Positions 5,856 through 28,408 of a DNA stretch of 32,355 nucleotides are shown here, one piece after another. The notes under the pieces were generated by a model. It did not search any database and was not told where the DNA came from. It worked only from the letters and a program-made list of their open reading frames with translations. The stretch covers positions 1-32,355 of IMG/VR virus record IMGVR_UViG_3300043331_000205, one strand, 5' to 3'. How positions within the stretch are numbered: position 1 is the stretch's first letter; each line of letters opens with the position of its first letter. This DNA is from a virus. The translations under genes were made by a program, and so were the position numbers.

Positions 5856-6449
5856 TCAGGATAGCAAGTGGCAAGGCACTGCGCTGTCCATAAAGGCATT
5901 GGCATACGCCTCGATGGGCCGCATCGGGTGAGGCAGATGGTCCGAGCGCCAATCGGTCGTCTGTTCGGCCCAAGGGAGGGAAGCCTGGAAAGCCGTGCGT
6001 TCCTCCTGTGTGGTCAAATTCTGGTCCCACACGTGCCCAAGCTCGTGCAGGAACAGCCGTGCCAGGTAAGCCGGGTCGTGGGCATGTCGGTTGAGCACGA
6101 CGGCGTTAGCGAAGGCGTACCCCACAGTCGAGGCGAAGGTGACCTGAAGTTTCCCTCCCGGCAACTCGGCAAAGAGGGGGCGCAGGTCCCGGCGCACAAT
6201 GCTCAGGGTGTTGAGGATGATGGCCCTCTGCTCGGGCGTCCCGTAGTCGCTCTCGGATGTGGCGTAGAAGGTGACGACCACTCCGCCATCCGGGTCGTTG
6301 TACGACAGATCGAGCACGTTCTCCGGTAAGTATTCCAGTTGGGGCGGAATGGCACACTCTCGTTGCCAAGCGTCGGCCTGAAGGGCAGCCCCCATTACGA
6401 GCCCCCCGATTAGGCCAAGGACCAGAGCGTAACGCTGTACCCGCTTCAC
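5856..6449 (-). CDS. Membrane-anchored gluzincin-type metalloprotease in the lysis cassette
   Basis: A 197-residue protein. The start is a GTG at 6449 overlapping the endolysin stop as GTGA, with GAGGA seven bases upstream; a longer ATG frame from 6473 has no such support. Residues 6-24 form a signal or anchor helix (RYALVLGLIGGLVMGAALQ). The zinc site is HELGH at 135-139, and Glu180 in RPIEAYANAF about 40 residues later fits the third ligand of gluzincins. The product should act outside the cytoplasmic membrane. Directly following the endolysin, it could help degrade wall-associated protein during lysis or entry. No similarity to Rz-type spanins is visible. The catalytic motif is clear; the target is unknown. 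Confidence 0.7.
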   Translation of the reverse strand: MKRVQRYALVLGLIGGLVMGAALQADAWQRECAIPPQLEYLPENVLDLSYNDPDGGVVVTFYATSESDYGTPEQRAIILNTLSIVRRDLRPLFAELPGGKLQVTFASTVGYAFANAVVLNRHAHDPAYLARLFLHELGHVWDQNLTTQEERTAFQASLPWAEQTTDWRSDHLPHPMRPIEAYANAFMDSAVPCHLLS

Positions 6450-7204
6450 CCAAAGTTCCTCGGCCGGACCCAAGAGTGGATCTCTACGGCCGTCACGCCG
6501 TCGATGATGCCGGTAACAGCCAGGCCGTAGTTGACCTGGAACTGCCGCACGGCAGCCTCCATGGGGGCGTCAAAGATCTGGGGATTTGGCGACTGTCGCA
6601 TGAGAGCGTCGTCCTGGAAGTACCCGGACAGGCCCGCTCGCATGTCGTAGACAGCGTTTCCTTTGTCATTGAGTTTCAACATTCCTACCTCCGGTTTCTC
6701 GTGTTGCGTACTGAAGTATACCCCAGAAGACAACTCTTCAGGAGTTGCAATCATCTCAAAGTGCATGGCATCGAAGACCGTGTGCTCGTCAAAGTTCCAG
6801 TCCCCGTCCCAGTCCCCGCCCCACTTCCAGACCCGCTGCTCCCTCGCCCGGATGGTGTACACATCCTCAATGATGGGGAGGGCGATGTCGGTGACCAGTG
6901 TGCCGGTGTATGGGTTGTTGGCCGGGTTGATGTCGATAGCGAGGGCCCAGGCGTGGGGGGACCATATAGTTCCCCCGGTGATGCGCCGGTAGTTGTAGGA
7001 TCCGGCCGACCGGACCACGTACCCATGCTGCCGGAAGACCTGATCGAGCAGGCGCACGGCGGGGATGATTAGCTTGTTGGTCCAGGACACGGCAGCGCCG
7101 CTCTTCCAGTCGTAGCGGCCCAGGTCCACGTCGCCTCCGACAGTGAATGTGCCGGGCCTGCCCCACTCCAGGAAGCGCCACGTATTGAAACCTCTCGTCG
7201 CCAT
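6446..7204 (-). CDS. Endolysin: M15-family D-Ala-D-Ala peptidase with peptidoglycan-binding domain
   Basis: A 252-residue lysin with two domains. Residues about 40-155 form an M15/VanY-type zinc peptidase: SPHAWALAIDINP supplies His84 and Asp91, and DAMHFE supplies His148 with Asp145 nearby, the usual S-x-H-x(6)-D and D-x-x-H ligand pattern. Residues about 174-250 form a peptidoglycan_binding_1-type domain (AVRQFQVNYGLAVTGIIDGVTAVEI). The enzyme should cut cross-linking peptides of the cell wall. It has no signal peptide, so release depends on the holins encoded just upstream. The ATG shares a base with the stop of the XhlA-like gene, and the stop overlaps the metalloprotease GTG. Confidence 0.9.
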   Translation of the reverse strand: MATRGFNTWRFLEWGRPGTFTVGGDVDLGRYDWKSGAAVSWTNKLIIPAVRLLDQVFRQHGYVVRSAGSYNYRRITGGTIWSPHAWALAIDINPANNPYTGTLVTDIALPIIEDVYTIRAREQRVWKWGGDWDGDWNFDEHTVFDAMHFEMIATPEELSSGVYFSTQHEKPEVGMLKLNDKGNAVYDMRAGLSGYFQDDALMRQSPNPQIFDAPMEAAVRQFQVNYGLAVTGIIDGVTAVEIHSWVRPRNFG

Positions 7205-13679: not shown

Positions 13680-14576
13680 TTAAGCGTCGGTCACGACGGC
13701 GACACCGGCGTTGTTCTCAATCTCACCCACGCCATAGTCAGCAGAGCCAACAAGCACCCAGCCACGGATAGGAGCCCAACGCATGGGCTCAACCCGGACA
13801 TCGTACTTGGTGACCTTGCCCAGAGCGTAGTTCTTGACGAAGACAGCACCGGAGCGATCCGCACCGAGGTTCAATGTAGGAGAGTTAGTGGTGTTGAAGA
13901 AATCAATACCAAACCACTCACCGAAGTAGCCAGGACTGGAGTTTTTGCCAAGCATCCCCGTCTGTCCAGCCTCGAATCGAATCGAATGCTGAACGTTTGC
14001 AACGGTTTGCTGGTTCTTCAGGGCTGCCCGAATGTCACCAGTTTGGCGAGGGTGTCCAAGGAACACCAGCGGGCCAAGAGAGGCAGCATCCAGAGACTCC
14101 AGCGTATAGATAGCGTCGAGCACATTGTCCAGCGAGAAGTCCACGCCGGTTGAGCCTACCGAGTTTGAGAACCCGTTAAGCAGCGCCGCAATGTCAACGT
14201 CCATCTTGTCCGCAAGAGCCCGCCCAATCGTATCCAGTCGAGCACCGTGAGCCGCAGGAATATCCGACAGTTCGAGAACGTCCGTGATCGTCACCTGGAA
14301 GCCAATCTCTGCAGCCGTGATGGTTACAGAAGTGGTCGTCAGTGCCGTGTTGGTCGTTTCAACGCCCTGTGCCACTGCAGCCGCAGTGAACTTATCGGCC
14401 TTCGGGAACTTGTACGCCAGCGAAGCCTTGCCCACGAGCGACTCTGCACGAAGCAGAGGGATCGAGACAACGGCAGCCATGAGCGCACGCAGAACCTCGT
14501 CCGTGATCCACGAAGCGTAGGTCACGTCATCGTAGGTCGATGTGGTAGTCGGGTTGGTTGCGAAGTCAGAAGCCAT
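13680..14576 (-). CDS. Major capsid protein, HK97-like
   Basis: A 298-residue protein with the look of an HK97-fold coat protein without a large N-terminal delta domain: an N-terminal arm (ATNPTTTSTYDDVTYASWIT), a spine-helix region with RALADKMDVDIAALLNGF, and the P-domain and A-domain strands (LGPLVFLGHPRQTGDIRAAL, FGEWFGIDFFNTTNSP). It is preceded on the transcript by a coiled-coil, scaffold-like gene and followed by a strong hairpin. AAAGGGGG lies ten bases before the ATG, a good ribosome-binding site that fits high expression. I infer the fold from composition and gene order; no structure comparison was made. Confidence 0.78.
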   Translation of the reverse strand: MASDFATNPTTTSTYDDVTYASWITDEVLRALMAAVVSIPLLRAESLVGKASLAYKFPKADKFTAAAVAQGVETTNTALTTTSVTITAAEIGFQVTITDVLELSDIPAAHGARLDTIGRALADKMDVDIAALLNGFSNSVGSTGVDFSLDNVLDAIYTLESLDAASLGPLVFLGHPRQTGDIRAALKNQQTVANVQHSIRFEAGQTGMLGKNSSPGYFGEWFGIDFFNTTNSPTLNLGADRSGAVFVKNYALGKVTKYDVRVEPMRWAPIRGWVLVGSADYGVGEIENNAGVAVVTDA

Positions 14577-14602: not shown

Positions 14603-15145
14603 TTACTGTTGTCGGATCAGACCGCTTTGCACATAGAAGTTTTCCTTCGAGAAACGAACTCGGCCTTCTCTAAGGGCCTTATCCGCAGCTACCGGATCTG
14701 TCTTCGCCAACTCGGTCAGTTGAGCACTGTTCAGCATTTCCGTTCCGGGGGTTAGCTGGCCCCCTTCACCGGCCTTGCTCCCAGCGTTGCCCACCAACGC
14801 CAGACCTTTGTTGGTTTCGGACGATTCGCCCGCTTCTCCACTCGCTTCCTTAGGAGCCTCAGATTCAGTCTTCGTAGGAGCCGGGTCCTTCGCCGGTTCT
14901 GGCGTAGCCGCCCCGATCCCCATTCCTTCAGACCAACTCTTGACGGACTCAGCCGTGACTTCCGCTCCAGCGGTCGCAGTAGCGAACGCCTTTGCCTGGG
15001 TCTCGTTGAGCCCTCCGAGCAGTTGTGCCTTCAGGATTCGGTTCTCGGTTTGCGCCTGAGCCAAAGCCGCTTGGGACTTCTCATGCTCTTCCTTGTACTT
15101 CTCCTGCGACTCTCGCAGTTCACGAATGTCTGTGGTTTCTGCCAT
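14603..15145 (-). CDS. Scaffolding protein candidate
   Basis: A 180-residue, charged protein directly before the capsid gene. Residues 1-45 are a heptad-like coiled coil (LRESQEKYKEEHEKSQAALAQ). The middle is acidic and Pro/Glu/Ser-rich (EPAKDPAPTKTESEAPKEAS) and probably disordered. The last part holds a helix (LTELAKTDPVAADKALREG). This layout and position are typical of phage scaffolds, which assemble inside the procapsid and leave. GAAAGGAAAGGA precedes the ATG. There is no visible protease motif. Confidence 0.72.
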   Translation of the reverse strand: MAETTDIRELRESQEKYKEEHEKSQAALAQAQTENRILKAQLLGGLNETQAKAFATATAGAEVTAESVKSWSEGMGIGAATPEPAKDPAPTKTESEAPKEASGEAGESSETNKGLALVGNAGSKAGEGGQLTPGTEMLNSAQLTELAKTDPVAADKALREGRVRFSKENFYVQSGLIRQQ

Positions 15146-15222: not shown

Positions 15223-16674
15223 TCATTCTAATGACTCTCCACGGAGGCGTTGGAAACCCACCGCCCTGCCGCCTTCAGTCCTCGGTCGTACTTTGTTTTG
15301 GAGGAATGCACGAGCAGAGGATAGTGACCGTTCCATCTCCTGCGCTATATCCGCCTGGTTTCGCCCCGAACGGGGAGCAACTCCAAGGGAAAGGTCGATA
15401 AGATCATCGGGGTCCAGAGTACCAAGGTCAATCTCTCTGCGGAACTGGAGCACCAAACGTGCCGCCTGGGACATGCCTTCAAACGCTTCCTTAAAGGGAA
15501 CATCCGGGCCTAAGAAGTCCACAATGGCTCCGGCATCTCCGGCCGAAAGCACATCTCCCAGCCCGGCTGCCTCGCCCGCCTCCAGGACCGAGGACTCGGC
15601 GTAGATCTCGTAGATCTCGTCGTCGGCCTGGCCGGAGAGGAAGTCGAACATGCCCTCGGAAGTGAGGGTGGGAATGCCTCGGTATGAGAGGATCTCCTGG
15701 AAGGCAGAGAGTGCCTCCCGGTTTTCCTCAAACCGCTCAAACACGTCGTATGTGGTCTGAATGGTCTTGGCGCTCTTCTGACCACGGATCAGCCGGTTGA
15801 TGTCTTCCCGAGGGGCCTCGTGGCCCTCGTACTGGATGTTCAACTGGTTCACCATATTCTCGTACTCCCGATAAGCGTCCACCGACTCAGCCACGTTGAG
15901 GCCCTGCTTGCGGAACACGTCGATTTCGGGATAGCGGGCCATGAACACCTGAGTCTTCGAGACCTGTTCGAGCAGCCGGTCATCCGACCAGTCCTCGTGC
16001 TCGGCCACGAAGATGAGAGACTCGATCTCGGCGTTGCCCCGGAACTCTTCCGGCACGATGCCGGTGCCCAGCCCAGAAGCCACGGCACGCTCATAGGCCG
16101 TAAGGAAGTTCTCTCCGGTCGGAGACTCAACCTCGCTCACATTGCCAGCAAAGAAAAGGCTCTGCGTCCGAGCCATGTTGTCAAGGTCACCCTGGCCCAT
16201 CGAGCCGTAGGTCGAAGGCTGCCCCGTCTGCCCGAAGATGGCAGCCATCTGCTCAGGAGACGCCTCGAAGTAAATCTGTTGCCCGCCCGGCAAGGTGTAA
16301 ACGGCAACCCACTTCTCAGCCGCCTCGGTCCCGGACGGATCGGTGATGCGGAACCACTGGGCTCCGCCGTAAATCTGCAGAGTCGGTGTGGTCTGCACCA
16401 CTGGGGTCTCGGCAGGAGCAGCAGTAGAGCCAGCGCCAGCCGCCCCGCCGCCTCCACCCCCGCCCGTGCCGGACCCAGTGCCTCCCCCTGTGGATGTGGT
16501 CCCAGAGCGAGAGGGCCGGGGAGCCGCCTCCTGTTCCCCGGCAGGCTTTACATAACGATTCCCGCCGTGCTCGACGGCGATGGTCACTTCAGTCTCCCCA
16601 TTCAGGCGAGCAAGCTCGATCTGGTCTTCCAGCGGAAGCATTCGGAACCCTTGGTCAGACAAGCCGTAAGGCAT
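15223..16674 (-). CDS. Virion-associated protein with Gly-rich linker
   Basis: A 483-residue protein. After a short N-terminal domain (about 1-45) comes a low-complexity Ser/Thr/Gly linker (about 53-90, with seven consecutive glycines), then a beta-containing segment (QWFRITDPSGTEAAEKWVA), then a long mainly helical C-terminal part with many acidic residues. The start shares a base with the stop of the upstream gene, itself another Gly-linker protein. The position between the giant protein and the scaffold suggests an internal virion or ejection protein co-packaged with its neighbours. I do not recognise the family. Confidence 0.6.
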   Translation of the reverse strand: MPYGLSDQGFRMLPLEDQIELARLNGETEVTIAVEHGGNRYVKPAGEQEAAPRPSRSGTTSTGGGTGSGTGGGGGGGAAGAGSTAAPAETPVVQTTPTLQIYGGAQWFRITDPSGTEAAEKWVAVYTLPGGQQIYFEASPEQMAAIFGQTGQPSTYGSMGQGDLDNMARTQSLFFAGNVSEVESPTGENFLTAYERAVASGLGTGIVPEEFRGNAEIESLIFVAEHEDWSDDRLLEQVSKTQVFMARYPEIDVFRKQGLNVAESVDAYREYENMVNQLNIQYEGHEAPREDINRLIRGQKSAKTIQTTYDVFERFEENREALSAFQEILSYRGIPTLTSEGMFDFLSGQADDEIYEIYAESSVLEAGEAAGLGDVLSAGDAGAIVDFLGPDVPFKEAFEGMSQAARLVLQFRREIDLGTLDPDDLIDLSLGVAPRSGRNQADIAQEMERSLSSARAFLQNKVRPRTEGGRAVGFQRLRGESLE

Positions 16675-17828
16675 TAGGCTCCCCCTCCCCCGAGCACATC
16701 ACGAAGAGATCGGTAGCGGTTCTCGATGCGGTCGATGAACTTTGAAGACTTGGCAACGGTCGGATGGAAGCGCAGTCGGCCTTCGAGAGAATCAGGCGAA
16801 GCCCCAAAGGCAGCAGCGTTGCGTGCCACTGTGGGTGCATCGCCGGTCGGGCCCAGGACACCGAAGACGTTCGAGGCGTAGAAGCGCATGTAGTCCTCTT
16901 CGGAGACGCCAGAGGGCTTGTTACGGAAGAGGAACTTTGCATCAGGGCTTTCGAGCACCCGCCGTTTGGCCCACGTAGCGAAGTCGAGCGCCTGCGCCGG
17001 GTTTCCCGCCACGGTCTGCACGTACTGGCGAGCAAGGTCTTTCGCATTGGGCGCATCGGCCAAAGTGTAGAGACGCCAGGTCTCGTTGATGCGGTCAGCA
17101 AGCTGGTCGATGTCGAACATCTGAGCCGTGGTCCGGCCACCGCCGCCACCACCGCCACCGCCACGTCCGCTGCCGGTCGTACCGCCTGCCGGAAGGTCGC
17201 CGTACGTCCACCGCTGCTGGAGATACTTTCGCCCCATCTCGATGAACGAGCGAATGTTCTGAGGGTCCTCGGGGTGGAGCGGGCCCTTGCCCCCGCCGAA
17301 CACGGCGGATTGCATGTCCTCCCAGTAGTAGTCAAGGAAGCTCCCGGCAAAGCTGGCCGGGTCAGCAAAGCCAGCGTCCTTCGCACCAGCCGTAAGAATG
17401 TCCTGAAGGTTGGTCGCCACCGTATCCATCCAGCCAGGGATCTCCCGCTGGGGCCCACGGCCCGCCAACAGAAGCTCGGCCTCGGCAGGCAGGATGCGGG
17501 ACGCAAGCAATGCTGCGTACGCAGCCTCGTAGCTAAGGATGCCATCGTCGTACAACCCCTGCACCTGTGAGGCTGTGAGGTTGCGTCCTATCTGGTTGGC
17601 CTGCGAATCGTCTTCATCCTCGTCCGCAGGCCCGAGAGACGGAGCCCCGCTCCGCACCACTGAGCCTCCGCCGCCTGCCGGACGCTGCACGCCACCTTCA
17701 CGAGCAGCCGTCGAGAGGCCGGACTGGGGAGTAGTGGACCAGAGCCCACCGGACACATAAAGACGAACCTGCGAGTCTGCGACGATACGGGATTCTCCAC
17801 TCATCTTGTTATAGATGCGGGTTGCCAT
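16674..17828 (-). CDS. Virion-associated protein with two Gly-rich segments
   Basis: A 384-residue protein. It begins MATRIYNKMSGES and has a disordered acidic stretch (GPADEDEDDSQ), a helical region starting NLTASQVQGLYDDGILSYEA (a small-helix packing pattern), then a run of nine glycines inside TGSGRGGGGGGG and beyond, and a helical C-terminal domain ending YRSLRDVLGGGGA. Its start is nine bases after the stop of the 2128-residue protein, using the same CATTCCAAC spacer as two other junctions here. It resembles its downstream neighbour in architecture, so both may be internal capsid or ejection proteins. No enzymatic motif is visible. Confidence 0.6.
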   Translation of the reverse strand: MATRIYNKMSGESRIVADSQVRLYVSGGLWSTTPQSGLSTAAREGGVQRPAGGGGSVVRSGAPSLGPADEDEDDSQANQIGRNLTASQVQGLYDDGILSYEAAYAALLASRILPAEAELLLAGRGPQREIPGWMDTVATNLQDILTAGAKDAGFADPASFAGSFLDYYWEDMQSAVFGGGKGPLHPEDPQNIRSFIEMGRKYLQQRWTYGDLPAGGTTGSGRGGGGGGGGGRTTAQMFDIDQLADRINETWRLYTLADAPNAKDLARQYVQTVAGNPAQALDFATWAKRRVLESPDAKFLFRNKPSGVSEEDYMRFYASNVFGVLGPTGDAPTVARNAAAFGASPDSLEGRLRFHPTVAKSSKFIDRIENRYRSLRDVLGGGGA

Positions 17829-17840
17829 GTTGGAATGTTA
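17826..17840 (-). promoter_or_regulatory. Stop/start junction spacer, copy 1
   Basis: On the - strand the stop TAA of the giant gene is followed by CATTCCAAC and then ATG. The same TAA + 9 bases + ATG layout recurs at 24626-24640 and 26444-26458. No Shine-Dalgarno sequence lies between stop and start. Confidence 0.5.
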
Positions 17841-20800
17841 CCTCGTCCCAGCCAGGTCAAAGGCAATGTCATCGGTCGGGCGAAAGTCCTCGGGGTTGTA
17901 GATGTACTGGCCGTTCACCCACAGCCACACGAGGCGTCGTCCGAACTGGTCAATCTCGGGGAACCGAGGATCGGGCACCAGCCAGATCGAGCCCGCCGGT
18001 GCACGCTGCAGCATGTTGAACAGTTCTCGGTGGGCAGCCTCGGCCGCCTCAGGGTCCGTGCTGTACTCGGGGGCCCGCAAGCCGATAAGCCGAGCGCCGT
18101 ACGCTTGGGGGCGTCCCTGCTCGTCCCCAACCGTGAACTCAGGTCCAGGCAGCAGCATCGGACTGAAGGTTGTGCCCTGGTTAGCGTTCTGCGAAACCTC
18201 CATCGAGTCACCGTCGATGACGTTCCACACGTACGGCTGGAAGCCGTTCGCCTCACGAGGATGTCCCGAGGGCGGAGTCGGAGGCTCCCAATCATCCGGC
18301 CACACGCCGAAGTCATCAGCGAACGCCTGGTCCCACGTAGTCTTCCAAGCGAAGCCTGGATACGAGTGCGCCATCCACGCATAGGCATCCCGCAGCGTGG
18401 TGATGTCCTGCTGAATGTTGGGGTCCTCCCGAGGGTCCTCGTAGAACTGCGAGGCCACCCGCATATCGTCTTGCAGCGCCCGCAGGAAATCGACCCACTG
18501 ATCCGGGTACTGATCGTCCCCCGGACTCACCATGGCAATCTGTGCGAGTGCTTGGTCCTGCGCTGCCCCACGGAAGTCGGCTTCGTTGAGATACCGACCT
18601 ACGGTGAGGGAGTGCAGCGGGTTCTCTCGGTTCTGAGCCAGCTTCCCTTGGATGGCCTCGATCAACTGGGCCCCGGTGTACGAGTCGCCCAGATCAACGC
18701 CCAGCAGACGTGCCTCTTCGCTCAGTTGAGCAGCAGGCACCGTAAAGACGTACTCACGAATGTACGCCGGGAAGCCACCCGATCCTTCGATGACGTTGTT
18801 GGAACGCCACTGGTCATTCAGCGGCTCGCCGTCGTTGAGGAAGTCAGCATCCTCTGGCCGATTCTCCATGATCCACTGCACCGCCTCGGAGTAGATGTTC
18901 CGGGCTGCACGATCCTGCACCACGAAGTAGTAGCCAATGGCACTCAGGAGCACATCTTTGGCAGGGCGGGGAACCAGCCAGCCCAGCTTCTTGTACTGCT
19001 CGAACTTCTCTGCTCCCACGTTGCCGGGGAAGTGCTGGAAGGGGGTCGAGCCTTCAAGCTCAGGAATCTCATCCACCTTCAGCGTGTTCCAGGTCCAGCC
19101 AGACACCAACTGAGGCACGAGTCCGGGGAACTGGAGAATGAGCTTGTCCCTCTCGCTGACCGGGAGGTTGTAGAACGTGTTACGGATGGCACTGGCCGCA
19201 TCAGCCCGTGCATTCTCATCCTCCGGCCGGGCAGCAAGCAAGGCCCCCTCACGCTCCGGTAGGAGAGTGGGGAAGATCTTCCCAGCTTCCAGCCAGATTT
19301 CTTCGAGATCCTCCAGCGTGGGGTCGGTGTTGAAGCGGGACGGCACAACCTGCCGGAGCAGAGTCCGCTGCAGCAGAGCCTCGCCCGCCTCTTCCAATGC
19401 CGTGTACGCAAAAGCCTGAAGCAACTGGTTCACCAGATCCTTCTCGGATGTGCCTGCCTGGCCGTACGCCAGCAACTCTTCCCACGCTTCCTGCGTGCCG
19501 AGAATGCCCTTGATCGAGCGCACCGCCTGTGTCGAGCCCTGCGTGTCCCCGATGAACTCCATGAGAGACCACGGAGCCGGGAACTGTCCACCCGTCCGCA
19601 GGCCGGTAGCTGCCGCCATGCGCATGAACGACGACACCCAGCCTCCGCCCAGGAAGCGTCCCAGCGGTGACGGAGAGCCGTATTCCACAGTCGGAAAGAA
19701 GCCCGGAAGCTCGTCCCGCATCCACCGCTCAAAGGCGTTGTATTCCTCCGGGCTCTGCGCCGGATCGGGCACGAAGTAGTCGATGAAAACGGTGGGAATC
19801 ACGCCCAGGCCAGGGAGCAAAGAGAAGAATGGATTTTCGCCTCGGTGAGGCAAGAAGGTTGCCGCTCCCAAGTCAAGGCCCTCAATGTCCACATCGTCCC
19901 CGAACGCCACGCTCAGGGGCCAAGGTACCCGAAAGCTGAGGTTCTGGTTCTCCAATTCAAAGTCGAGAGCAGCCACACGAGAGACCAAGGCGGTAGTGCG
20001 GTTAGGCAGAATCGGTACCGGGTAGTGCCGAAGAGCCTGGTCGATCCACCCGCTGATGCGAGGGTGATTCTCCCCAATGAAGTGCCCTCGCAACACCGGC
20101 TTCGAGAAGACCCGGTTGAGGTAGTAGCTCCACATGTCGGCCCACGGCTTGCCGAACGGTGCAACATGCCGGGCCGCCAGGCCAGCCGGAGAGTCCAGAT
20201 GCCACGAGTACATGATGCGATCCACCGCACGAGTGGCAGAGCGATCTGCAAGATTCTCCAGGTAGGTACGAGGCACTACCTTCATCCCAACAAGGCGCTC
20301 GTCCAAGAACCCAGTAGTCGCCCGAGAGAGGGGAACCTCAAAGCCCATCTGGACAGCCATCTGCTCGTACTGGTCCGGCTCCAGAATGCGATAGCCCTGC
20401 GAGTCCATCAAGGACTCCAGGCGCTTCATCTGCCGGGTGCGCTCCAGCACCGAGATCAGTTCTTGTCGGCCAGCCTGCGGCTGCAGAAAGAGCGTGTCCA
20501 GCATTCCCCGGACGCCCTGGAAGGCATTGAACGCTTGGGGGTCCTGCGCCCAGCCGGGCAGGGGGCCCAACTCTCGAAGCACATACTGAGGGAGCCCAAC
20601 CGAGCGTCCCCGCTTGATGGACTGCTCGACGGCGTGGGCCCACGCAGCGTCAGTGCGGGCCGGGTTCTTGGGGTTGCGAGTCAGCCACTCCCAGATGTTC
20701 TCGTAGTTGCTGATGGCATCTTCCTTGGTCATCGGACGGGACACCTTGGTGATGTGGTCCTGTACCAACTGGTTACGCATCCAGTTCTGCTGGCTGTCCC

Positions 20801-23800
20801 AGAATGTGTCGAAGCCCCCAGCACGCCACTGAAGGAAGCCGGGGTCTTCGAGGAAGAAGTCGGTCAGTCCCTTAGCAACGGACTCGTGCTCCCACGAACC
20901 CACAGGAATGTCACGGAATACTTCTCCGGTTGCTTGGAACATGCTGCTCTGTCGTCCATGCAGTTCCCGAGGCACTGCTTCCTTAAAGCGGCGGAGGCGA
21001 CTCTCAGCGATACGGCTCACGGGACCTAAATTGGCATGGCCGCCGCTAATCCGACGCAGGCCGTAGTCAACAGTCCGCACTGCTCGGGCTGCATTTCGAT
21101 CCGCCCATGCCTGCAGTCCCCTAACTCCGTAGTCGTGGATGATGCGGTAGTACTCGTCCAAGTGAGCGACCGCTGCGGTCGAAGGACGCATCACCTTGTC
21201 GAACAGGAAGAAGCGACGGCCCGCTTCGTACCAGCGTCCGGCCGAGTCCTGGAGCTTGCGTCGGCCCCACTTGTTCCACTCGTTGAAGAACGCTCGGGTG
21301 ATTCGGTTCTTCCCCTGCATGTTGCCTCGGAGGATGCGGCCAAAAATGCTCCGGGCTACCAGCAAGTCGATAGGAGAAATAGGAAGATTCACGCTCATGC
21401 CCTCCGTCTGGGGAGTCAGCACTTTCTTAATCGTAGGAGGAAGATCCCGTCCGGCCGCAGGGTCAATCCGACGCTGCTGGCCTCGACGCCAGGGAGCATT
21501 GCTTCGCAAAATCTCCCACTGCACGGCACCCTTCTCGTCCAGCAGGCCAGGGATGCGGCTCAGGATCGAGTCGTTCTTCACATAGTCCTCGTACGTACGC
21601 AGGATCAGATCTCCCATACGCTTGCGCTGGTTGGGGTCTCCCAACCCCTGCAGAGCCTCAACCAGCTTGTTCGAGGTTGCCTGGAGACGGGGCATCTTGT
21701 GAGAGAGCAACGTGCGAGCCTGCGCTGAGGAACCAATGGCTTCCGCTTCCTTACGCATGATGCTCTGGATAAACCGAGCCCCATCGTCGGACATCTCGGG
21801 AGCCAGCTTGGTCACGTTGTTGGCGAGCCAGTACGGATCGAGTTGTGGTTCGAGCTTCCGAGCGGCTCGGAACAGTGTCAAGCCATCTCCCTTGTGGGTC
21901 TTCGAGGTTGCAATAGAAAGGTTGACCAGTTTGTCGTTGTCGTAGTCGAGTACGATGCGCCCAACCAACTGCTCACTGCGGTAGAGAGGCAACGTCAGTT
22001 GCGAACCATCCTCAGCAACGTGGGGCTTACCGATCCCATCACGCATTCCGGGGGCAGGCAACGGATCAATCGGCTGAATGTCCTTCCCCCCGAATGCCCT
22101 CACGAAGTCATCTGTGGGCTGGGAAGTGTAGTCCGCCAAGAGTCGAAGCTCGTCTGCGCTACGCCCGTCGATTCGGCGCTTGATCCCTTCCAAAAGCTCC
22201 CGCTGCTGGAACAGCCGAGTAGCGTCGTCCGCCGTGCCCGTGCTGGCCTTGCGGGCCAAGAACTGGATCGCCTGGTCCAAAGTATCGTACGGCTGCCCGC
22301 CGATAGTAAAGCCCTCCACCAGCGGTCGAATGTTGCCCTCCGCCAACTGCGAATAGATTCGCACTTCATCAGTCAGGTCCGCCGTGGCCTGACGCAGAAT
22401 GTCCACGTCGTCGGAATGGCGCAGCGAAACTTCGGACGCAATGCCCATGAACTCGTTAGAGAACTCGTCAAACTTAGAAAGATCATCGGAGAACAAAGTG
22501 GCGAAGGTTTCGAGCACATCATTGGTCATCGAGGACCCGTACAACTCCACGCTCGTGCGGTTGGACACGCTGGAAGTAAAGCGGCGGGCCGTCTCCACGA
22601 TGTCGTTCCCCGGATCGTCCAGGGTCGCCTTCACGACGTTGCCTCGATACTGGGCCCACATCAGGTTGTCTACCTGGCCTGGCTCGCCTCCCAAGAGAAT
22701 CGCCTCCGTGAACAGTTCCTTGGCCTTGTCCAGATTGCCGTTTTGGACAGCCCGGTGGAACTGCATCATCTGATTATCAGGCATCCACTCCGTTGCCGAT
22801 AGCATGGCCCGTCCGCCCCGCTGCGTGGAACTCACCAGGGAATCAAAGACCTGTCGTCCGGTGCGGGAGTTGACCAGGCCCATAACGTTGTCGGCTGTAG
22901 CGAACTGACGCAAAGCAGCGGCTCCCTTGGCCGGTGCGAAGACCCACGTTGTCGGATCGAAAATCGTCATCAGTCCGAAGTCGATGCCCAGGCCGAAGAA
23001 GGTTCCCTCCAGGCCCCAGATGGCGGAGGGTTGGGCGTCGTACTCTGCGATCTCGTCAAGGATGGCCCGGAACTCGCCATCGGCTACCATCTCTCGGATG
23101 TCATCGTCGCTGAGAAGCAGTCCGGCCCCCACAGCCAGACCGCCGGTCAGTCGGCCCCAGTCATCCATCAGGTCAAGAGTCGAGTAGTCGGCCCGGAACT
23201 GGTTCTCTTCGAGGGCTTTGTAGTAGACATCGTTCTCTTGGTCGAACGCCTGTTGGCGCATCTGCTGAACCTCGTCCATGTTCTCCTGGTTGCCGAGAAA
23301 GCCATCAAGCAGGAAGGCCGACGCAAGCTGATAGTCGCCCCCAGCCGCTTCGAGCAGGAAGGTCTGGGCCTCAGGAGTCATCTCTTCAAACGACACATCT
23401 GCCGTCACGGCGAGGTTCTGTGCGAAGCGAGCGTCCGCCTGCTCCTGGAGCTTCTGGTTGCCGACGATCTTGGTGGGCTCGCCCATGCCCCCAAAGGTCA
23501 GGGCGGAAGGACCCAACAGCATTGCAGCGGGAATCTTGTCGAGCACCTGCATAGCCGTTGGCAACGGAGCCTTGTCAGGATTGCCGGTTAGGGTTGCAGC
23601 CCACCCCCAGACCCCCTGCGAAGCAGCCATGAGGAAAGCGCCCCAGTTCGGGCGGTCGTCCACCTGAGAGCCTTCGATCCCGGCCCGGTATTCCTCGAAG
23701 AGCTTGGCGTACTGTTCCTCAAATGCCGACTGCACTCGGGCCTGCTCGGTGTCCTCGGGATCGGGCAGGATCAAAGAAGCGGCTCCCTGGCCGATGAGGT

Positions 23801-24224
23801 TGTTGATGATGGTCTGTCCCAGCCCCCGCTTCATGTCCTCAGCACGTACCTGATTGCGGGCCAGCCGATCCGCTTCATCAATGCGAGCCTGAGTCAGAGC
23901 CGCCCGAGCAGCGTAGCCCTCAGTTGCCTGGCGATCCATGTCGAGCATCGACTCGTCCAGGAAGCCAAGGTCGGCCGGATCGTAGGAAGTCATCTGCGAG
24001 ATGCTGCCTGTCGCACGAGTGCGGACATAGGCATTCTCGAACTCCTGGGCGTACGTACGCTGCGCCTTCCGCAGTGGGCTCTCCCATCCACGCTCGTGAA
24101 CCCGAAGCTCGGGGTTCTCGCTCGCCCGAGAGAACAAGTTGATTACGCCGTCAGGATTGGTGTGGCCGAAGCTCTCCACCACCGAACGGCTCCGGGGTGC
24201 GCCGGGGCGTCCCCCCCTCGCCAT
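17838..24224 (-). CDS. Giant virion protein (2128 aa) with C-terminal SNase-like domain
   Basis: The largest gene of the window. Its position between portal and capsid genes, and its length, suggest an internal virion or DNA-ejection protein. Most of it is helical, charged and without familiar motifs; near residues 735-800 a strand/helix segment (VNLSIATSKTHKGDGLTLF) could be a small alpha/beta domain. From about residue 1995 to the end it looks like a staphylococcal-nuclease (TNase) domain: VIDGDSMEV supplies the two aspartates, ARLIGLRAPEYS the first arginine and the glutamate, and DQFGRRLVWLWV the second arginine. The position of the third calcium ligand (Asp40 in SNase) is Arg here, so activity is uncertain. 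The start overlaps the upstream stop as TAATG. I see no DxDxD motif that would make it a virion RNA polymerase. Confidence 0.75.
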   Translation of the reverse strand: MARGGRPGAPRSRSVVESFGHTNPDGVINLFSRASENPELRVHERGWESPLRKAQRTYAQEFENAYVRTRATGSISQMTSYDPADLGFLDESMLDMDRQATEGYAARAALTQARIDEADRLARNQVRAEDMKRGLGQTIINNLIGQGAASLILPDPEDTEQARVQSAFEEQYAKLFEEYRAGIEGSQVDDRPNWGAFLMAASQGVWGWAATLTGNPDKAPLPTAMQVLDKIPAAMLLGPSALTFGGMGEPTKIVGNQKLQEQADARFAQNLAVTADVSFEEMTPEAQTFLLEAAGGDYQLASAFLLDGFLGNQENMDEVQQMRQQAFDQENDVYYKALEENQFRADYSTLDLMDDWGRLTGGLAVGAGLLLSDDDIREMVADGEFRAILDEIAEYDAQPSAIWGLEGTFFGLGIDFGLMTIFDPTTWVFAPAKGAAALRQFATADNVMGLVNSRTGRQVFDSLVSSTQRGGRAMLSATEWMPDNQMMQFHRAVQNGNLDKAKELFTEAILLGGEPGQVDNLMWAQYRGNVVKATLDDPGNDIVETARRFTSSVSNRTSVELYGSSMTNDVLETFATLFSDDLSKFDEFSNEFMGIASEVSLRHSDDVDILRQATADLTDEVRIYSQLAEGNIRPLVEGFTIGGQPYDTLDQAIQFLARKASTGTADDATRLFQQRELLEGIKRRIDGRSADELRLLADYTSQPTDDFVRAFGGKDIQPIDPLPAPGMRDGIGKPHVAEDGSQLTLPLYRSEQLVGRIVLDYDNDKLVNLSIATSKTHKGDGLTLFRAARKLEPQLDPYWLANNVTKLAPEMSDDGARFIQSIMRKEAEAIGSSAQARTLLSHKMPRLQATSNKLVEALQGLGDPNQRKRMGDLILRTYEDYVKNDSILSRIPGLLDEKGAVQWEILRSNAPWRRGQQRRIDPAAGRDLPPTIKKVLTPQTEGMSVNLPISPIDLLVARSIFGRILRGNMQGKNRITRAFFNEWNKWGRRKLQDSAGRWYEAGRRFFLFDKVMRPSTAAVAHLDEYYRIIHDYGVRGLQAWADRNAARAVRTVDYGLRRISGGHANLGPVSRIAESRLRRFKEAVPRELHGRQSSMFQATGEVFRDIPVGSWEHESVAKGLTDFFLEDPGFLQWRAGGFDTFWDSQQNWMRNQLVQDHITKVSRPMTKEDAISNYENIWEWLTRNPKNPARTDAAWAHAVEQSIKRGRSVGLPQYVLRELGPLPGWAQDPQAFNAFQGVRGMLDTLFLQPQAGRQELISVLERTRQMKRLESLMDSQGYRILEPDQYEQMAVQMGFEVPLSRATTGFLDERLVGMKVVPRTYLENLADRSATRAVDRIMYSWHLDSPAGLAARHVAPFGKPWADMWSYYLNRVFSKPVLRGHFIGENHPRISGWIDQALRHYPVPILPNRTTALVSRVAALDFELENQNLSFRVPWPLSVAFGDDVDIEGLDLGAATFLPHRGENPFFSLLPGLGVIPTVFIDYFVPDPAQSPEEYNAFERWMRDELPGFFPTVEYGSPSPLGRFLGGGWVSSFMRMAAATGLRTGGQFPAPWSLMEFIGDTQGSTQAVRSIKGILGTQEAWEELLAYGQAGTSEKDLVNQLLQAFAYTALEEAGEALLQRTLLRQVVPSRFNTDPTLEDLEEIWLEAGKIFPTLLPEREGALLAARPEDENARADAASAIRNTFYNLPVSERDKLILQFPGLVPQLVSGWTWNTLKVDEIPELEGSTPFQHFPGNVGAEKFEQYKKLGWLVPRPAKDVLLSAIGYYFVVQDRAARNIYSEAVQWIMENRPEDADFLNDGEPLNDQWRSNNVIEGSGGFPAYIREYVFTVPAAQLSEEARLLGVDLGDSYTGAQLIEAIQGKLAQNRENPLHSLTVGRYLNEADFRGAAQDQALAQIAMVSPGDDQYPDQWVDFLRALQDDMRVASQFYEDPREDPNIQQDITTLRDAYAWMAHSYPGFAWKTTWDQAFADDFGVWPDDWEPPTPPSGHPREANGFQPYVWNVIDGDSMEVSQNANQGTTFSPMLLPGPEFTVGDEQGRPQAYGARLIGLRAPEYSTDPEAAEAAHRELFNMLQRAPAGSIWLVPDPRFPEIDQFGRRLVWLWVNGQYIYNPEDFRPTDDIAFDLAGTR

Positions 24225-24628
24225 TACCTCAGCCCTCGGCCGGTGCTCTGGACGGCCAGCGAACGGAGCAAGGCTGCGGCCATCTTCCGCAGATGTGGCG
24301 TCTTGGCAAACTGAGCAATCGAAGCGAGCTTCTGCGCCTGCGTCATCTGCGCCATCAAATCAGAATTCATGGGGAGCCCCTGAAGGGGTCCGTCACCGGG
24401 CCCGACAGAGAGCCCACTGGTGATCGGCTCCTGCGATGCAGGCATAGATGCCAGCTTCGCCAGAGGCGATCCCATATCAACACCAACGTCCGCCCCGGCA
24501 GCAGAGACCTGTGCGCTCCGGGGAGGCAGGGCGCTCGTTCGCACACCGCCCTGGCGGGCTATCGACTGAAGTTGTTTGCGCTGTCCATGCTGGAACGATG
24601 ACCCTTGAAAGATATTCGGGCTAGCCAT
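24224..24628 (-). CDS. Short protein between portal and giant virion protein
   Basis: A 134-residue protein with a Gln/Ser/Gly/Ala/Pro-rich, probably disordered body (GGVRTSALPPRSAQVSAAG) and a helical C-terminal end with basic residues (QAQKLASIAQFAKTPHLRKM). It is placed directly after the portal gene (nine-base spacer) and overlaps the giant gene by TAATG. It may be a packaged small protein or a portal partner. I do not recognise it. Confidence 0.6.
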   Translation of the reverse strand: MASPNIFQGSSFQHGQRKQLQSIARQGGVRTSALPPRSAQVSAAGADVGVDMGSPLAKLASMPASQEPITSGLSVGPGDGPLQGLPMNSDLMAQMTQAQKLASIAQFAKTPHLRKMAAALLRSLAVQSTGRGLR

Positions 24629-24640
24629 GCGGGAATGTTA
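24626..24640 (-). promoter_or_regulatory. Stop/start junction spacer, copy 2
   Basis: Portal stop TAA, then CATTCCCGC, then ATG of the next gene. Seven of the nine spacer bases equal copy 1 (CATTCCAAC). Confidence 0.5.
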
Positions 24641-26446
24641 CACCGACTGGAGCGGACTCGACAGCAAACGCTGCATGGGAGGCAGTGCCATGCTCGGGGG
24701 AGCCTGCCGGGCGCTGCCCGGTATGCCTCCACGGGCAAGGGACTCGGCCTGCTGCAGTGCCTCGGCACCTGCGTCTCCCCCCGCTCCGGGCGGGACCAGG
24801 CCCGTCCCCGGCGAAGGAGCAGGAGCCTGCAATGCCTTCACCAATTCCTCAATGGCATCGTCAATAGAAACTTCTTCCTTGTCGAGTGCAGCAAGGAACT
24901 GAGCAGCGATCTCCAAATTGCCCTGGCTCGCCTGTTGCAATACGCCAAGCATGACTGCCTTGCGAGTGTCAGCCCGAGCACGCCGCAGTTCCTCCACCGT
25001 AGGATCGGGGAGGAAGTTCAGGTTCTCTCGCACAGTCTCCGCCGACAACACTTCGTTCGAGAGCCACATCGCCATGCGCATCTCCCGGCTCTGGGGGTCC
25101 GACCCAGCCCCGATGCCGTAGGTCACGGACACGACGTAGTGCCCGTCCACATCGGTCTTGGGGTTGTAAGTCTCCGCCGTGCGGTAGATCCGGTCGTCGC
25201 CATGAATGGTCTTCTCGCCAGCGCAGTAGATCTCGTCAAAGCGAAGCATCATGCCAGAGATCTTGATGAGCAGACGCTCGAACTGCTTGTGCGCCAGCGC
25301 CAGCCGTGCGTCGATCTGGCCCATGCTGGCGTCGATGCCTCGGGCCGAGATGATCGAAGCACCCGGCTCCCCCGTCAACTGCTGAGGGAAGGCCGACTGC
25401 TGGCGAAGCTCATCACCCAGGCGAGCGATCAGGTCCTTGACATCGAACCGGCCGCTGCCCTGAATGCGCTCCATCCGAGCATCGTGCGAGCGAGCGTGCA
25501 ATGTGCCTGCCGGGCCGAAGTCCTCGGGGTTGAGCACGTTGAACTCCAGGACCGGAGGGAACACATCTTCCTCGGTCGCCATGATCGTGAGGGACATCAG
25601 GCGGTGAATGGTCCGCATGACGTGAAGGGCCTGGTCGAAGAGACCCCGGCGCTGTCCGTCGAAAGACGGCCGGACTTCCTCCACCACAGGAACGAAGCCG
25701 AGCTTGTTCTCTTCCCGTGCCAGGATCACTACGCCGTCCTTGCGGTTCTCGGTCGTAGCGTCGGCCACTGCCAGGATGAACTCATCCCTCTTGAACCAGA
25801 ACCACTCTTCCAACATCTCGCCGTCCTGCTTGGGCAGGCGGTCTTCAAACTCAGGGTACTTCGCTCGGAACTCGGCCCGGCTGATCCGGCGAGCAACGAG
25901 CGCAGTCTGCACGTCACCCTTCTGGTCTTTCAGCAGGTAAGTGTGCCGAGGATCGAAGCGAAGGATGTACGGGTTGCGGTCGGCTGCTGGCACGGTGAAG
26001 TCAGCCCACACGCCAAAGATGACAGCCCCGGCTCCGGCGTAGTCGCCACCACCCAGGGCCAAAAGTTCGAGCAGGTTGCTCTGCTCCCACAACTCCAAGA
26101 GCCGACGCTCTCGCTTACGAGCCTTCTTCTTCCCCACCGCCCGATCCTGCACGACAGGCACGGGGCAGCGAAGGGTTGGCATCTGGCTGCCGAAGATGGC
26201 AGACCAGTGGGCAATGCCCATCTCCACGATGTTCGCAACAGTAGGAGCTTCGGCCGTCTTGGTCAGGTCAGGCCACACCATGTCCCACTCGCCGTTCGCA
26301 ATGCGGGTAACTTCCTCGACCCGATCATGCCATCTCTTATGAAGCTCCACCAGAAAGTCACGCTGCGCCCGAAGGTCAGCACCGGAGGGTTGGGCTATGG
26401 TGGCAACGGTGCCGTGTTCGACACTCTGATAACCGGGCTCGATCAT
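24638..26446 (-). CDS. Portal protein
   Basis: A 602-residue protein right after the large terminase gene. Features typical of portals: an N-terminal helical/charged region, a wing domain with the long strand run (NPYILRFDPRHTYLLKDQKG), a conserved-looking aromatic-rich region (EEWFWFKRDEFILAVAD), a central stem helix region with GRFDVKDLIARLGDELRQQ, and a Pro/Gly/Gln-rich C-terminal tail (APSPGTGLVPPGAGGDAGA). Portals form the dodecameric ring through which DNA is packaged. Length and order (terminase, portal, virion proteins, scaffold, capsid) fit well. Confidence 0.82.
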   Translation of the reverse strand: MIEPGYQSVEHGTVATIAQPSGADLRAQRDFLVELHKRWHDRVEEVTRIANGEWDMVWPDLTKTAEAPTVANIVEMGIAHWSAIFGSQMPTLRCPVPVVQDRAVGKKKARKRERRLLELWEQSNLLELLALGGGDYAGAGAVIFGVWADFTVPAADRNPYILRFDPRHTYLLKDQKGDVQTALVARRISRAEFRAKYPEFEDRLPKQDGEMLEEWFWFKRDEFILAVADATTENRKDGVVILAREENKLGFVPVVEEVRPSFDGQRRGLFDQALHVMRTIHRLMSLTIMATEEDVFPPVLEFNVLNPEDFGPAGTLHARSHDARMERIQGSGRFDVKDLIARLGDELRQQSAFPQQLTGEPGASIISARGIDASMGQIDARLALAHKQFERLLIKISGMMLRFDEIYCAGEKTIHGDDRIYRTAETYNPKTDVDGHYVVSVTYGIGAGSDPQSREMRMAMWLSNEVLSAETVRENLNFLPDPTVEELRRARADTRKAVMLGVLQQASQGNLEIAAQFLAALDKEEVSIDDAIEELVKALQAPAPSPGTGLVPPGAGGDAGAEALQQAESLARGGIPGSARQAPPSMALPPMQRLLSSPLQSV

Positions 26447-26458
26447 GCTGAGATGTTA
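26444..26458 (-). promoter_or_regulatory. Stop/start junction spacer, copy 3
   Basis: Terminase stop TAA, then CATCTCAGC, then ATG of the portal gene. The same 3+9+3 layout as copies 1 and 2, with a partly conserved spacer (CAT-x-x-C-x-x-C). Confidence 0.45.
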
Positions 26459-28408
26459 CATCCTCCGCCCACGGCCTGGGAGATTTCCACCCCGAAGTTG
26501 GGCAGCCTCAGCCAGAGTAGACCGAATGCCGGTACGGTGCCGGATGATCGGAGGACCTCCCCGGCGTTGAGCAGCCGCAGCTTGGTCGATCACATCATGC
26601 CTGGCGTGGCCCGCCACTCCGTTTGCAACCCAAAGCGCAATCGCCCCGTCCTGTTCTTCCGAGAAGGGAAAAGCGAGCAGGTCCTCGATCAGTGGTCGCA
26701 GCTTTTCCTTGTCCGCCTCGGTGTGCGAGGGGAAGGCGATCAGTCCGTTGCCGAAGAGCGAGGCCATCGCAGCCACGCCGTACTCTTCGTCCCACTTCGA
26801 GCCGGGCTTGTGGCCCTTGCCTACCGTGCGGTGATCAATCACGATGGTGCCCGCTGCCTTCGCACGCTCCATGAAAGACTCATCACCCATGAGGGTCGGA
26901 GCGAAGTTGGTCTCAACGGCAGAGAACTGCACACGATGGTCTCGGTACTCTTCCCAAAACTGGTAGAAGAGGTTGTGTCGGATGCCGGTGGCTCCGAGGT
27001 TCGAGCGCACGAAGATGTCCACAACCCTGCGGACTCGGGTACTTGGATCGAATGCCAGTAAGAGGGAGAATGCTCGCCCGGTCGTCGCAGGGTCTACCCC
27101 CAGTATAAGGATCTCGTGATCGAGCACCGTGCCGAGCGAGAAGTTGGCTCCCAAGTCAAACGCCTTGTCGATGTGGTCCTGCCGGAAGATGGCCTCGGTC
27201 TCTTCGACATCCTCCTGCTGCCACACGAGCTTCCACCGCAGAGGGTTGCCAGCGAACTCGGTGCGAATGTCAAGCAGGCCCGGCCGGTAAACCTCGCCTT
27301 CGATGGGGTCCTCAAACAGCCCTCCCTCCAAGGCCCAGTACTCAGGCCAGCTTGGGCGCTCGTCCTCCGTGAACTCGTCCAGCAGAGCAGGGATGGAAAC
27401 GAGCCGGTAGGTCGCCAGTCCCTTCCACCGCTTCTTCCACACGCCGTACAGGTCAAAGGGAAGCAGCCGGGTGCCGTTGATGACGGTCTGCCCCTTGTTG
27501 GCACGAGAGCGGACTTCCCCAGTGAACCAGTTGTCGATCTTCTGGCGCATGGTGGGAGACATCTGGTTGTCGGTCACGAGAGCATCGTCCAAAATCAGAA
27601 CATCGAGGCGGGTTCCGTAGATCAGCTTGCCGATGCCGAGGGCTTGTACGGTCGGGTCACGCTCTCCAGAGGTACGGTGGCGCACCACGATACGAGATGC
27701 CTGCCACTCACCTGCCTCGTCGCCCTGCGGACGCCAGCCGTTGAAGTCGTCAATGAGGTTCCCCTCACGTCCCTCGTACAAGTGGCGCTCGGTAAGGTGC
27801 CTCTTCACCCGGTCAAGCAGAGCGTTAGCTTGCTCGCCGTTCTTCGAGACGATGGCGATGCGCACGTTGGGGTTGCGAGCGATGCGATAGAGCACGTACC
27901 AGAGCGTGACGAGGGTGGACTTCCCCGACTCGGGGTGTCCGAGAATCTGCACGATGCGACCCATCGGGTCAGCCAGGTTTTCAGCGATGCGCTTCTGGTG
28001 CTCTGACAGGATCACGCCGAAGTACCGCCACACGAACGCCTCGAACGAGACCTTCGACAAGTCGGGGTACGCCCATTCGGCCCCGGACTCCCGCACGGCC
28101 CGCACACGCTGGGCCCACTGGAGATCCTCAACGGACCACTTCTCCCACGAGGACTTCAGCGTGTAGCCGAGGCCCTCCGCCGCTTTGCTGTAGCTCCACC
28201 CATGCTGGACCAGTTCAAAGAACGCCCTCTTGGCCCACGACTTATAGGCAGACGTGCCCTTCTTGTCGGGCGGGTTGACTACGAAGACCGGATCGAGCCC
28301 GGACCCAATGGGCGGCTTGACAAAGAACCCCGGCACACCACTGCGCCAGTAGCTCTCGATTTCATCCCACGCCTTCTGTGGGTCAGCGATTGGTCGTCCG
28401 GCAGACAC
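26456..28408 (-). CDS. terL: Terminase large subunit (TerL) with N-terminal helix-turn-helix-like region
   Basis: A 650-residue packaging motor. The ATPase part has Walker A GHPESGKSTL (about 156-165) and Walker B DVLILDDAL (about 268-276). The nuclease part begins with LILGVDPATTG (about 431-441, first catalytic Asp) and continues with VETNF and, near the end, HDVIDQAAAA with further acidic residues. Residues about 62-100 (ELVQHGWSYSKAAEGLGYTL, then SSWEKW) look like a helix-turn-helix, which is the usual DNA-recognition feature of a separate small subunit. No TerS gene is visible immediately upstream. The start is a GTG at 28408. The portal follows after nine bases. Confidence 0.9.
   Translation of the reverse strand: MSAGRPIADPQKAWDEIESYWRSGVPGFFVKPPIGSGLDPVFVVNPPDKKGTSAYKSWAKRAFFELVQHGWSYSKAAEGLGYTLKSSWEKWSVEDLQWAQRVRAVRESGAEWAYPDLSKVSFEAFVWRYFGVILSEHQKRIAENLADPMGRIVQILGHPESGKSTLVTLWYVLYRIARNPNVRIAIVSKNGEQANALLDRVKRHLTERHLYEGREGNLIDDFNGWRPQGDEAGEWQASRIVVRHRTSGERDPTVQALGIGKLIYGTRLDVLILDDALVTDNQMSPTMRQKIDNWFTGEVRSRANKGQTVINGTRLLPFDLYGVWKKRWKGLATYRLVSIPALLDEFTEDERPSWPEYWALEGGLFEDPIEGEVYRPGLLDIRTEFAGNPLRWKLVWQQEDVEETEAIFRQDHIDKAFDLGANFSLGTVLDHEILILGVDPATTGRAFSLLLAFDPSTRVRRVVDIFVRSNLGATGIRHNLFYQFWEEYRDHRVQFSAVETNFAPTLMGDESFMERAKAAGTIVIDHRTVGKGHKPGSKWDEEYGVAAMASLFGNGLIAFPSHTEADKEKLRPLIEDLLAFPFSEEQDGAIALWVANGVAGHARHDVIDQAAAAQRRGGPPIIRHRTGIRSTLAEAAQLRGGNLPGRGRRM

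What the first reader, a model, noticed from the sequence alone, without database searches (positions are those of the whole stretch)
17838..24224. Giant 2128-aa virion protein with C-terminal SNase-like domain
The C-terminal part has VIDGDSMEV, ARLIGLRAPE and DQFGRR, matching the D19/D21, R35/E43 and R87 positions of staphylococcal nuclease, while the D40 position is Arg. A nuclease carried inside the particle and delivered with the DNA would be a direct weapon against host DNA or RNA, or a DNA-handling tool. With one ligand changed, a binding-only role is also possible. Most of the protein has no recognised domain.
Basis: partly seen in the sequence, partly recalled or inferred. Interest (0 to 1): 0.7.

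Follow-up and report, generated by a model that had tools for sequence, protein, structure and literature searches.

The report
Giant phage protein with nuclease tail
An uncultured bacterial virus encodes a 2128-residue protein beside its shell genes that ends in a staphylococcal-nuclease-type domain, and the same tail with its key catalytic residues is kept in every complete relative we found, which suggests a DNA- or RNA-cutting tool that travels inside the virus particle.

Summary
Residues about 1995-2128 of the 2128-aa ORF are a divergent staphylococcal-nuclease (SNase) domain. The window sequence alone matches nothing in Pfam, PHROGs or PDB. A profile of 20 homologous tails finds only SNases in PDB (best E 7e-6). 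An AlphaFold model aligns to SNase at Z 11.8 over 99 residues.

I found 28 distinct homologues, all from uncultured viral contigs or MAGs. D19, G20, D21, R35, D77, D83 and R87 (SNase numbering) are invariant in all 29 sequences, and residue 43 is E (25) or D (4). Position 40, Arg here, varies (M12 R7 N5 D2 L1 Q1 S1), with at least 8 changes on the tree. All members with an intact 3' end keep the domain.

Gene order TerL-portal-small ORF-GIANT-two ORFs-scaffold-capsid-neck is conserved. Podophages of Beephvirinae have an unalignable giant in the same slot.

Best explanation: a head-internal, probably ejected protein carrying a metal-dependent nuclease whose D40 ligand is dispensable. The fold is near-certain, presence in the virion likely, activity and delivery inferred. 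Some relatives also carry ParB-like domains mid-chain. No cultured phage matches the giant, and the 2017 polyvalent-protein survey's main text does not mention SNase.

The parts
17838..24224 (-). Giant 2128-aa ORF, probable head-internal/ejection protein
   Evidence: one frame; homologous ORFs (complete ones 2.1-2.6 kaa) in the same slot
17841..18242 (-). C-terminal SNase-like domain, residues about 1995-2128 (motif core 2002-2101: 17922-18221)
   Evidence: profile vs PDB only SNases E 7e-6; AF2 model, Foldseek E 2.9e-5, VIA Z 11.8
18207..18215 (-). D2004-G2005-D2006 = SNase D19-G20-D21 (metal site), invariant in 29 of 29
18066..18092 (-). R2045-E2053 = SNase R35-E43; R2050 at the D40 position
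   Evidence: R35 invariant, E43 E/D, position 40 variable
17937..17951 (-). D2092-R2096 = SNase D83-R87
   Evidence: both ends invariant 29 of 29
19065..21542 (-). Conserved, mostly helical core (residues 895-1720) with PFGxPW motif and three-Gly motif; no known fold found
   Evidence: AF2 pLDDT 64, pTM 0.49; no significant PDB/BFVD match
26456..28408 (-). Terminase large subunit
   Evidence: phrog_38 E 4.9e-51
24638..26446 (-). Portal protein
   Evidence: 25-27% identity to annotated Beephvirinae portals
24224..24628 (-). 134-aa ORF next to the giant, found in the nearer relatives
16674..17828 (-). 384-aa ORF following the giant, possible co-ejected protein
   Evidence: conserved neighbour; function inferred
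15223..16674 (-). 483-aa ORF, possible co-ejected protein
   Evidence: conserved neighbour; function inferred
14603..15145 (-). Probable scaffold (180 aa, before capsid gene)
   Evidence: position; conserved neighbour; function inferred
13680..14576 (-). Major capsid protein
   Evidence: PF25209 E 1.1e-9, phrog_544 E 1.4e-11

Best explanation
The gene encodes a giant, mostly helical head-internal protein of a podovirus-lineage phage. It is packaged next to the portal and probably leaves the head with the genome. Its C-terminal tail is a genuine SNase-family OB-fold domain in which the acidic metal site (D19/D21 plus E43) and the phosphate-binding arginines (R35, R87) are under strict selection, while the D40 metal ligand is not. 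The most likely function is a metal-dependent, probably attenuated, phosphodiesterase that becomes active once it meets divalent metal in the host cell, where it cuts host nucleic acid or processes DNA at entry. Shown here: the fold, the family, the residue pattern and the gene context. Inferred: presence in the virion, ejection, catalysis and substrate.
For: Profile A5 finds only SNases in PDB, E 7e-6. AF2 model Foldseek E 2.9e-5; VIA Z 11.8, rmsd 2.5, 99 residues. SNase-type phrog_452 'endonuclease' matches 12 of 17 members at E<=0.05, best 2e-12. D19, D21, R35, D83 and R87 are invariant in 29 of 29 and E43 is E/D, although mean pairwise identity over the N-terminal 894 residues is 22%. Position 40 changed at least 8 times on the tree while D19, D21, R35 and R87 never did. 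The tail is present in every member with an intact 3' end. Conserved TerL-portal-giant-scaffold-MCP order; Beephvirinae and ct2KA10 have a giant ORF in the same slot, and Beephvirinae phage Abafar has podoviral morphology (PMC11536984). Giant ejected proteins exist in other podoviruses (N4 vRNAP, PMC12633501).
Against: D40, one of the Ca2+ ligands of SNase, is absent in 27 of 29. The C-terminal helix of SNase beyond about residue 122 is not matched. No proteomics or enzymology exists. An active nuclease inside a filled head would endanger the phage's own DNA unless held inactive. The core fold is unrecognised, so its similarity to known ejection proteins could not be tested.
Confidence: 0.55

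Rival explanations
1. A non-catalytic nucleic-acid clamp: the SNase pocket binds a DNA end or backbone phosphate (R35, R87) to hold the genome end in the head or to guide DNA during ejection, without cutting.
For: D40 absent in 27 of 29; no sign of how packaged DNA would be protected from an active nuclease; SNase-fold domains can serve as binding modules (for example Tudor-SN, general knowledge).
Against: The acidic residues D19, D21 and E43 are as conserved as the arginines; a pure phosphate binder would not need the general base E43 or the metal-site aspartates.
Confidence: 0.25
2. A packaging or head-maturation nuclease: the tail acts during assembly (trimming or resolving DNA at the portal) and not in the host.
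For: A free SNase-type endonuclease gene lies directly before the terminase gene in cyanomyovirus S-BM1, and a free SNase lies about 3 kb from terL, on the opposite strand, in sister phage ct2KA10; the giant gene itself follows the portal gene.
Against: Fusion to a 2-kaa internal protein is an odd way to supply a packaging factor; terminase normally has its own nuclease.
Confidence: 0.15
3. A polyvalent effector in the sense of Iyer et al. 2017: an injected multidomain protein whose variable modules attack host defence or metabolism, the SNase tail being one module. This overlaps the best explanation and differs in purpose only.
For: Several relatives carry ParB/Srx-like domains mid-chain (L169 552-613, L170 651-721, L172 803-853); the middle part of the chain is highly variable.
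Against: The window protein itself has no second recognised domain; the tail is universal, not swapped as effector modules usually are.
Confidence: 0.3
4. A relic or chance resemblance with no SNase relationship.
For: The single window sequence gives no Pfam or PDB match.
Against: Family profile, predicted fold and residue conservation all agree.
Confidence: 0.01

Closest known systems
Staphylococcal nuclease / SNase family (PF00565)
   Same: OB-fold beta1-3, alpha1, beta4-5; D19, D21, R35, E43, D77, D83 and R87 in register
   Different: Position 40 is Arg here and variable in the family; Thr41 is Ala; long beta2-beta3 insertion in the window (about residues 2012-2043); C-terminal helix of SNase not matched; fused to a 2-kaa protein
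Free phage SNases (phrog_452 'endonuclease'; cyanomyovirus S-BM1 protein next to gp17; ct2KA10 ORF)
   Same: Same domain family; best PHROG for 12 of 17 members; tblastn of the L170 tail hits cyanophage endonucleases at E down to 2e-6
   Different: Stand-alone proteins of about 130-150 aa; S-BM1 keeps D40, ct2KA10 has N40
Giant gp9 of Beephvirinae Streptomyces podophages and the 1764-aa ORF of ct2KA10
   Same: Same genomic slot between portal and scaffold/capsid genes
   Different: No detectable sequence similarity by hhalign; no SNase tail found in them (first 30 kb of the Beephvirinae genomes only)
Polyvalent proteins (Iyer et al. 2017, PMC5512222)
   Same: Very large phage proteins encoded near virion genes, predicted to be injected, with variable enzymatic modules including ParB-like DNases
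   Different: The paper's main text has no mention of SNase/staphylococcal and says ParB-like DNases there are not accompanied by other DNase domains; here ParB-like and SNase domains co-occur in relatives
Ejected giant proteins of Schitoviridae (N4 vRNAP)
   Same: Giant protein of a podovirus packaged and ejected (PMC12633501 abstract)
   Different: That is an RNA polymerase; no RNAP or other known fold was found in the giant core here

Membership tests
SNase superfamily (fold) | SNase OB-fold | tested here: met
   AF2 core blocks mostly pLDDT above 85; Foldseek E 2.9e-5; VIA Z 11.8 over 99 residues
SNase superfamily (sequence) | Significant sequence-profile similarity to SNases | tested here: met
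   Profile of 20 homologues E 7.3e-6, and every listed match is SNase; single window sequence alone not significant
Catalytically canonical SNase | D21, R35, E43, R87 present | tested here: met
   29 of 29 for D21, R35, R87; E43 as E or D
Catalytically canonical SNase | D40 Ca2+ ligand present | tested here: not met
   R2050 in the window; D in only 2 of 29
Catalytically canonical SNase | Metal-dependent cleavage of DNA/RNA | not testable with these tools
   needs an assay
Phage virion / ejection protein | Gene in the head structural cassette with conserved order | tested here: met
Phage virion / ejection protein | Found in particles and ejected | not testable with these tools
   uncultured phage; needs mass spectrometry
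Phage virion / ejection protein | Fold similar to known ejection proteins | tested here: inconclusive
   core model low confidence, no significant match
Polyvalent proteins | Two or more disparate enzymatic domains in one chain | tested here: inconclusive
   met in relatives L169, L170, L172 (ParB-like plus SNase); only SNase recognised in the window protein

The most novel reading that the evidence does not exclude
A lineage of uncultured podophages packages several copies of a 2-2.6 kaa protein whose tail is an active SNase that works without the D40 ligand, is silent in the metal-poor head and switches on in the host cytoplasm: a virion-delivered nuclease of a kind not mentioned in the main text of the 2017 polyvalent-protein survey, sometimes paired with a ParB-like DNase in the same chain.
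Probability: 0.35. Interest if true: 0.78.

Novelty: new variant of a known kind. Interest (0 to 1): 0.6.

Why it matters
Virion-delivered enzymes act before any phage gene is expressed, and few with a clear catalytic domain are known outside N4-like RNA polymerases and peptidoglycan hydrolases. A universal SNase tail on a giant head protein gives a concrete, testable case of a packaged nuclease, and poses the question of how a phage carries a nuclease next to its own DNA. The family is also a natural experiment on SNase chemistry: position 40 is released while the other active-site residues are fixed, so it can show whether the D40 ligand is dispensable.

Tried and rejected
Single-sequence searches of the protein and of its tail against Pfam, PHROGs, PDB and cultured phages: nothing. 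Pattern scans of IMG/VR with the single giant or terminase sequence: nothing; alignments of distant portals were needed to reach relatives.

A first hhalign run used a wrong-strand ORF for Immanuel3; it was repeated with the right ORFs and still showed no similarity to the Beephvirinae or ct2KA10 giants.

Core fold search: low-confidence model, no significant hit in PDB or BFVD; best BFVD row E 3e-3 at TM 0.19, not used.

GBSV1-NSN (PMC2390534), which came up as a possible phage SNase, has only 10% identity to S. aureus nuclease and is said to be unrelated to known nucleases; not used as precedent.

Literature searches for a virion SNase and for SNase D40 mutants in open text found nothing usable. 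The kinetic effect of losing D40 is therefore not cited; my recollection is that D40 mutants of SNase keep reduced activity.

L178, whose ORF ends without the tail, stops 13 bases before its contig end, so it is not counted as lacking the domain. One pattern search of the own record was uninformative.

Full report
WHAT IS THERE. The window is a whole IMG/VR virus record of 32355 bases. The ORF 17838-24224 lies on the minus strand and gives one unbroken 2128-aa protein. Its start overlaps the stop of a 134-aa ORF. Reading along the minus strand the order is terminase large subunit (28408-26456; phrog_38 E 5e-51), portal (26446-24638; by similarity to annotated portals), 134-aa ORF, the giant, ORFs of 384 and 483 aa, a probable scaffold, and the major capsid protein (PF25209 E 1e-9). 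After these come neck and tail genes.

THE TAIL. The window sequence alone has no Pfam, PHROG or PDB match, even for the isolated tail in Pfam and PDB. An alignment of portals from the window, Beephvirinae phages and ct2KA10 found portal relatives in IMG/VR at about 50% identity. Their neighbouring giants then seeded alignments that found more giants. Among unique sequences whose 3' end is inside the contig, all carry DGD[T/S] near the C-terminus; the four without it are cut by the contig end.

Twenty tails were aligned (A5). The profile of A5 against PDB gives SNase at E 7.3e-6, and every row shown is SNase. AlphaFold2 with A5 gives pLDDT 78, with most core blocks above 85 and low values only in the 48-68 insertion and the termini. 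Foldseek's 50 listed matches are all SNase, best E 2.9e-5. VIA-align gives Z 11.8, rmsd 2.5 over 99 residues, model 24-150 on SNase 7-122. Independently, phrog_452 'endonuclease' matches 12 of 17 full-length members at E<=0.05, best 2e-12 at L170 2304-2394.

THE ACTIVE SITE. In 29 giants D19, G20, D21, R35, G38, D77, D83 and R87 are invariant; Thr41 is always Ala; E43 is E in 25 and D in 4. Position 40 is M12, R7, N5, D2, L1, Q1, S1. On a maximum-likelihood tree of the core (residues 895-1720), position 40 needs at least 8 changes. The SNase region holds 10 invariant columns in 100 against 33 in the other 2028 (p 1.8e-5). It has mean pairwise identity of 41%, against 30% for the core and 22% for the N-terminal 894 residues. 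A dead domain kept only for its fold would not be expected to fix the general base, the metal-site aspartates and both phosphate-binding arginines. A canonical SNase would be expected to fix D40 as well. The pattern therefore points to retained but altered catalysis; this is inference.

CONTEXT. The order TerL-portal-(134 aa)-giant-384-483-scaffold-capsid-neck is conserved in about two dozen contigs as far as each extends. The same slot holds a giant ORF of about 1640 aa in Beephvirinae and 1764 aa in ct2KA10, without detectable similarity to this family. Beephvirinae phage Abafar has podoviral morphology (PMC11536984). This makes a head-internal, possibly ejected, protein the natural reading, by analogy with P22 and N4 ejection proteins (abstracts). 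I found no proteomic evidence for this family.

RELATED OBSERVATIONS. Some relatives have ParB-like domains in the middle of the chain (similar sequence at that place in L171 and L174); no such match was found in the window protein. ct2KA10 carries a free SNase on the opposite strand about 3 kb from terL, with Asn at position 40. Cyanomyovirus S-BM1 carries a free SNase with intact D40 directly before its terminase gene. Fusion of a free phage SNase onto the giant is a plausible origin (inference). The giants of three relatives find no match among 50,697 phage records, nor does the window's.

COMPARISON AND NOVELTY. The tail is a member of the SNase superfamily by fold and sequence, but not a canonical SNase because the D40 ligand was tested and not met. 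As a type of protein the giant resembles polyvalent proteins. The main text of the 2017 survey does not mention SNase and states that ParB-like DNases in such proteins are not accompanied by other DNase domains (PMC5512222); its supplements were not read. I rate it a new variant of a known kind.

LIMITS. Residue 40 chemistry, metal use, substrate, packaging and ejection are untested. The core model is of low confidence, so nothing is claimed about its fold. A shared fold shows no function. The relatives are uncultured contigs, so hosts are unknown; the MAG bins that hold three of them may be mis-binned viral contigs.

Noticed in passing
L169:552-613 aa, L170:651-721 aa, L172:803-853 aa of the giants: ParB/Srx-like domains in the middle of several relatives (PHROG E down to 2.6e-5; Pfam ParB_N in 2 members), apparently two copies in L172; no match in the window protein.
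   Followed up: partly
window 21825-22097 (giant residues about 710-800): Variable-region stretch shared by the window and L167 (LVNLSIATSKTHKGDGLTLFRAARK in the window) that by eye recalls an acetyltransferase motif; no database match.
   Followed up: no
L003:2-385 (-) and L004:24788-25222 (+): Free SNase-like protein with a hydrophobic N-terminus and Asn at position 40 in sister phage ct2KA10.
   Followed up: partly
L231:1444-1902 (Synechococcus phage S-BM1): Free SNase-type endonuclease gene directly before the terminase large subunit gene in a cyanomyovirus, suggesting a wider link between phage SNases and packaging genes.
   Followed up: partly
window 3849-4910 (-): Probable tail or fibre protein with about six tandem copies of an RRYxxSFAELEIPxA-like motif.
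   Followed up: no
window 6446-7204 (-): Endolysin-like ORF with Peptidase_M15_4 (E 2.4e-11) and PG_binding_1 (E 4e-8) domains.
   Followed up: no
window 3393-3839 (-): 148-aa ORF that by eye resembles aspartyl/asparaginyl beta-hydroxylase-like oxygenases; not tested.
   Followed up: no
window 19770-19856 (giant residues 1457-1485): Conserved FLPxxGxNPF...PGxGxIP block that contains the only strongly hydrophobic stretch of the protein (1466-1485), a possible membrane-contact segment of an ejected protein.
   Followed up: no
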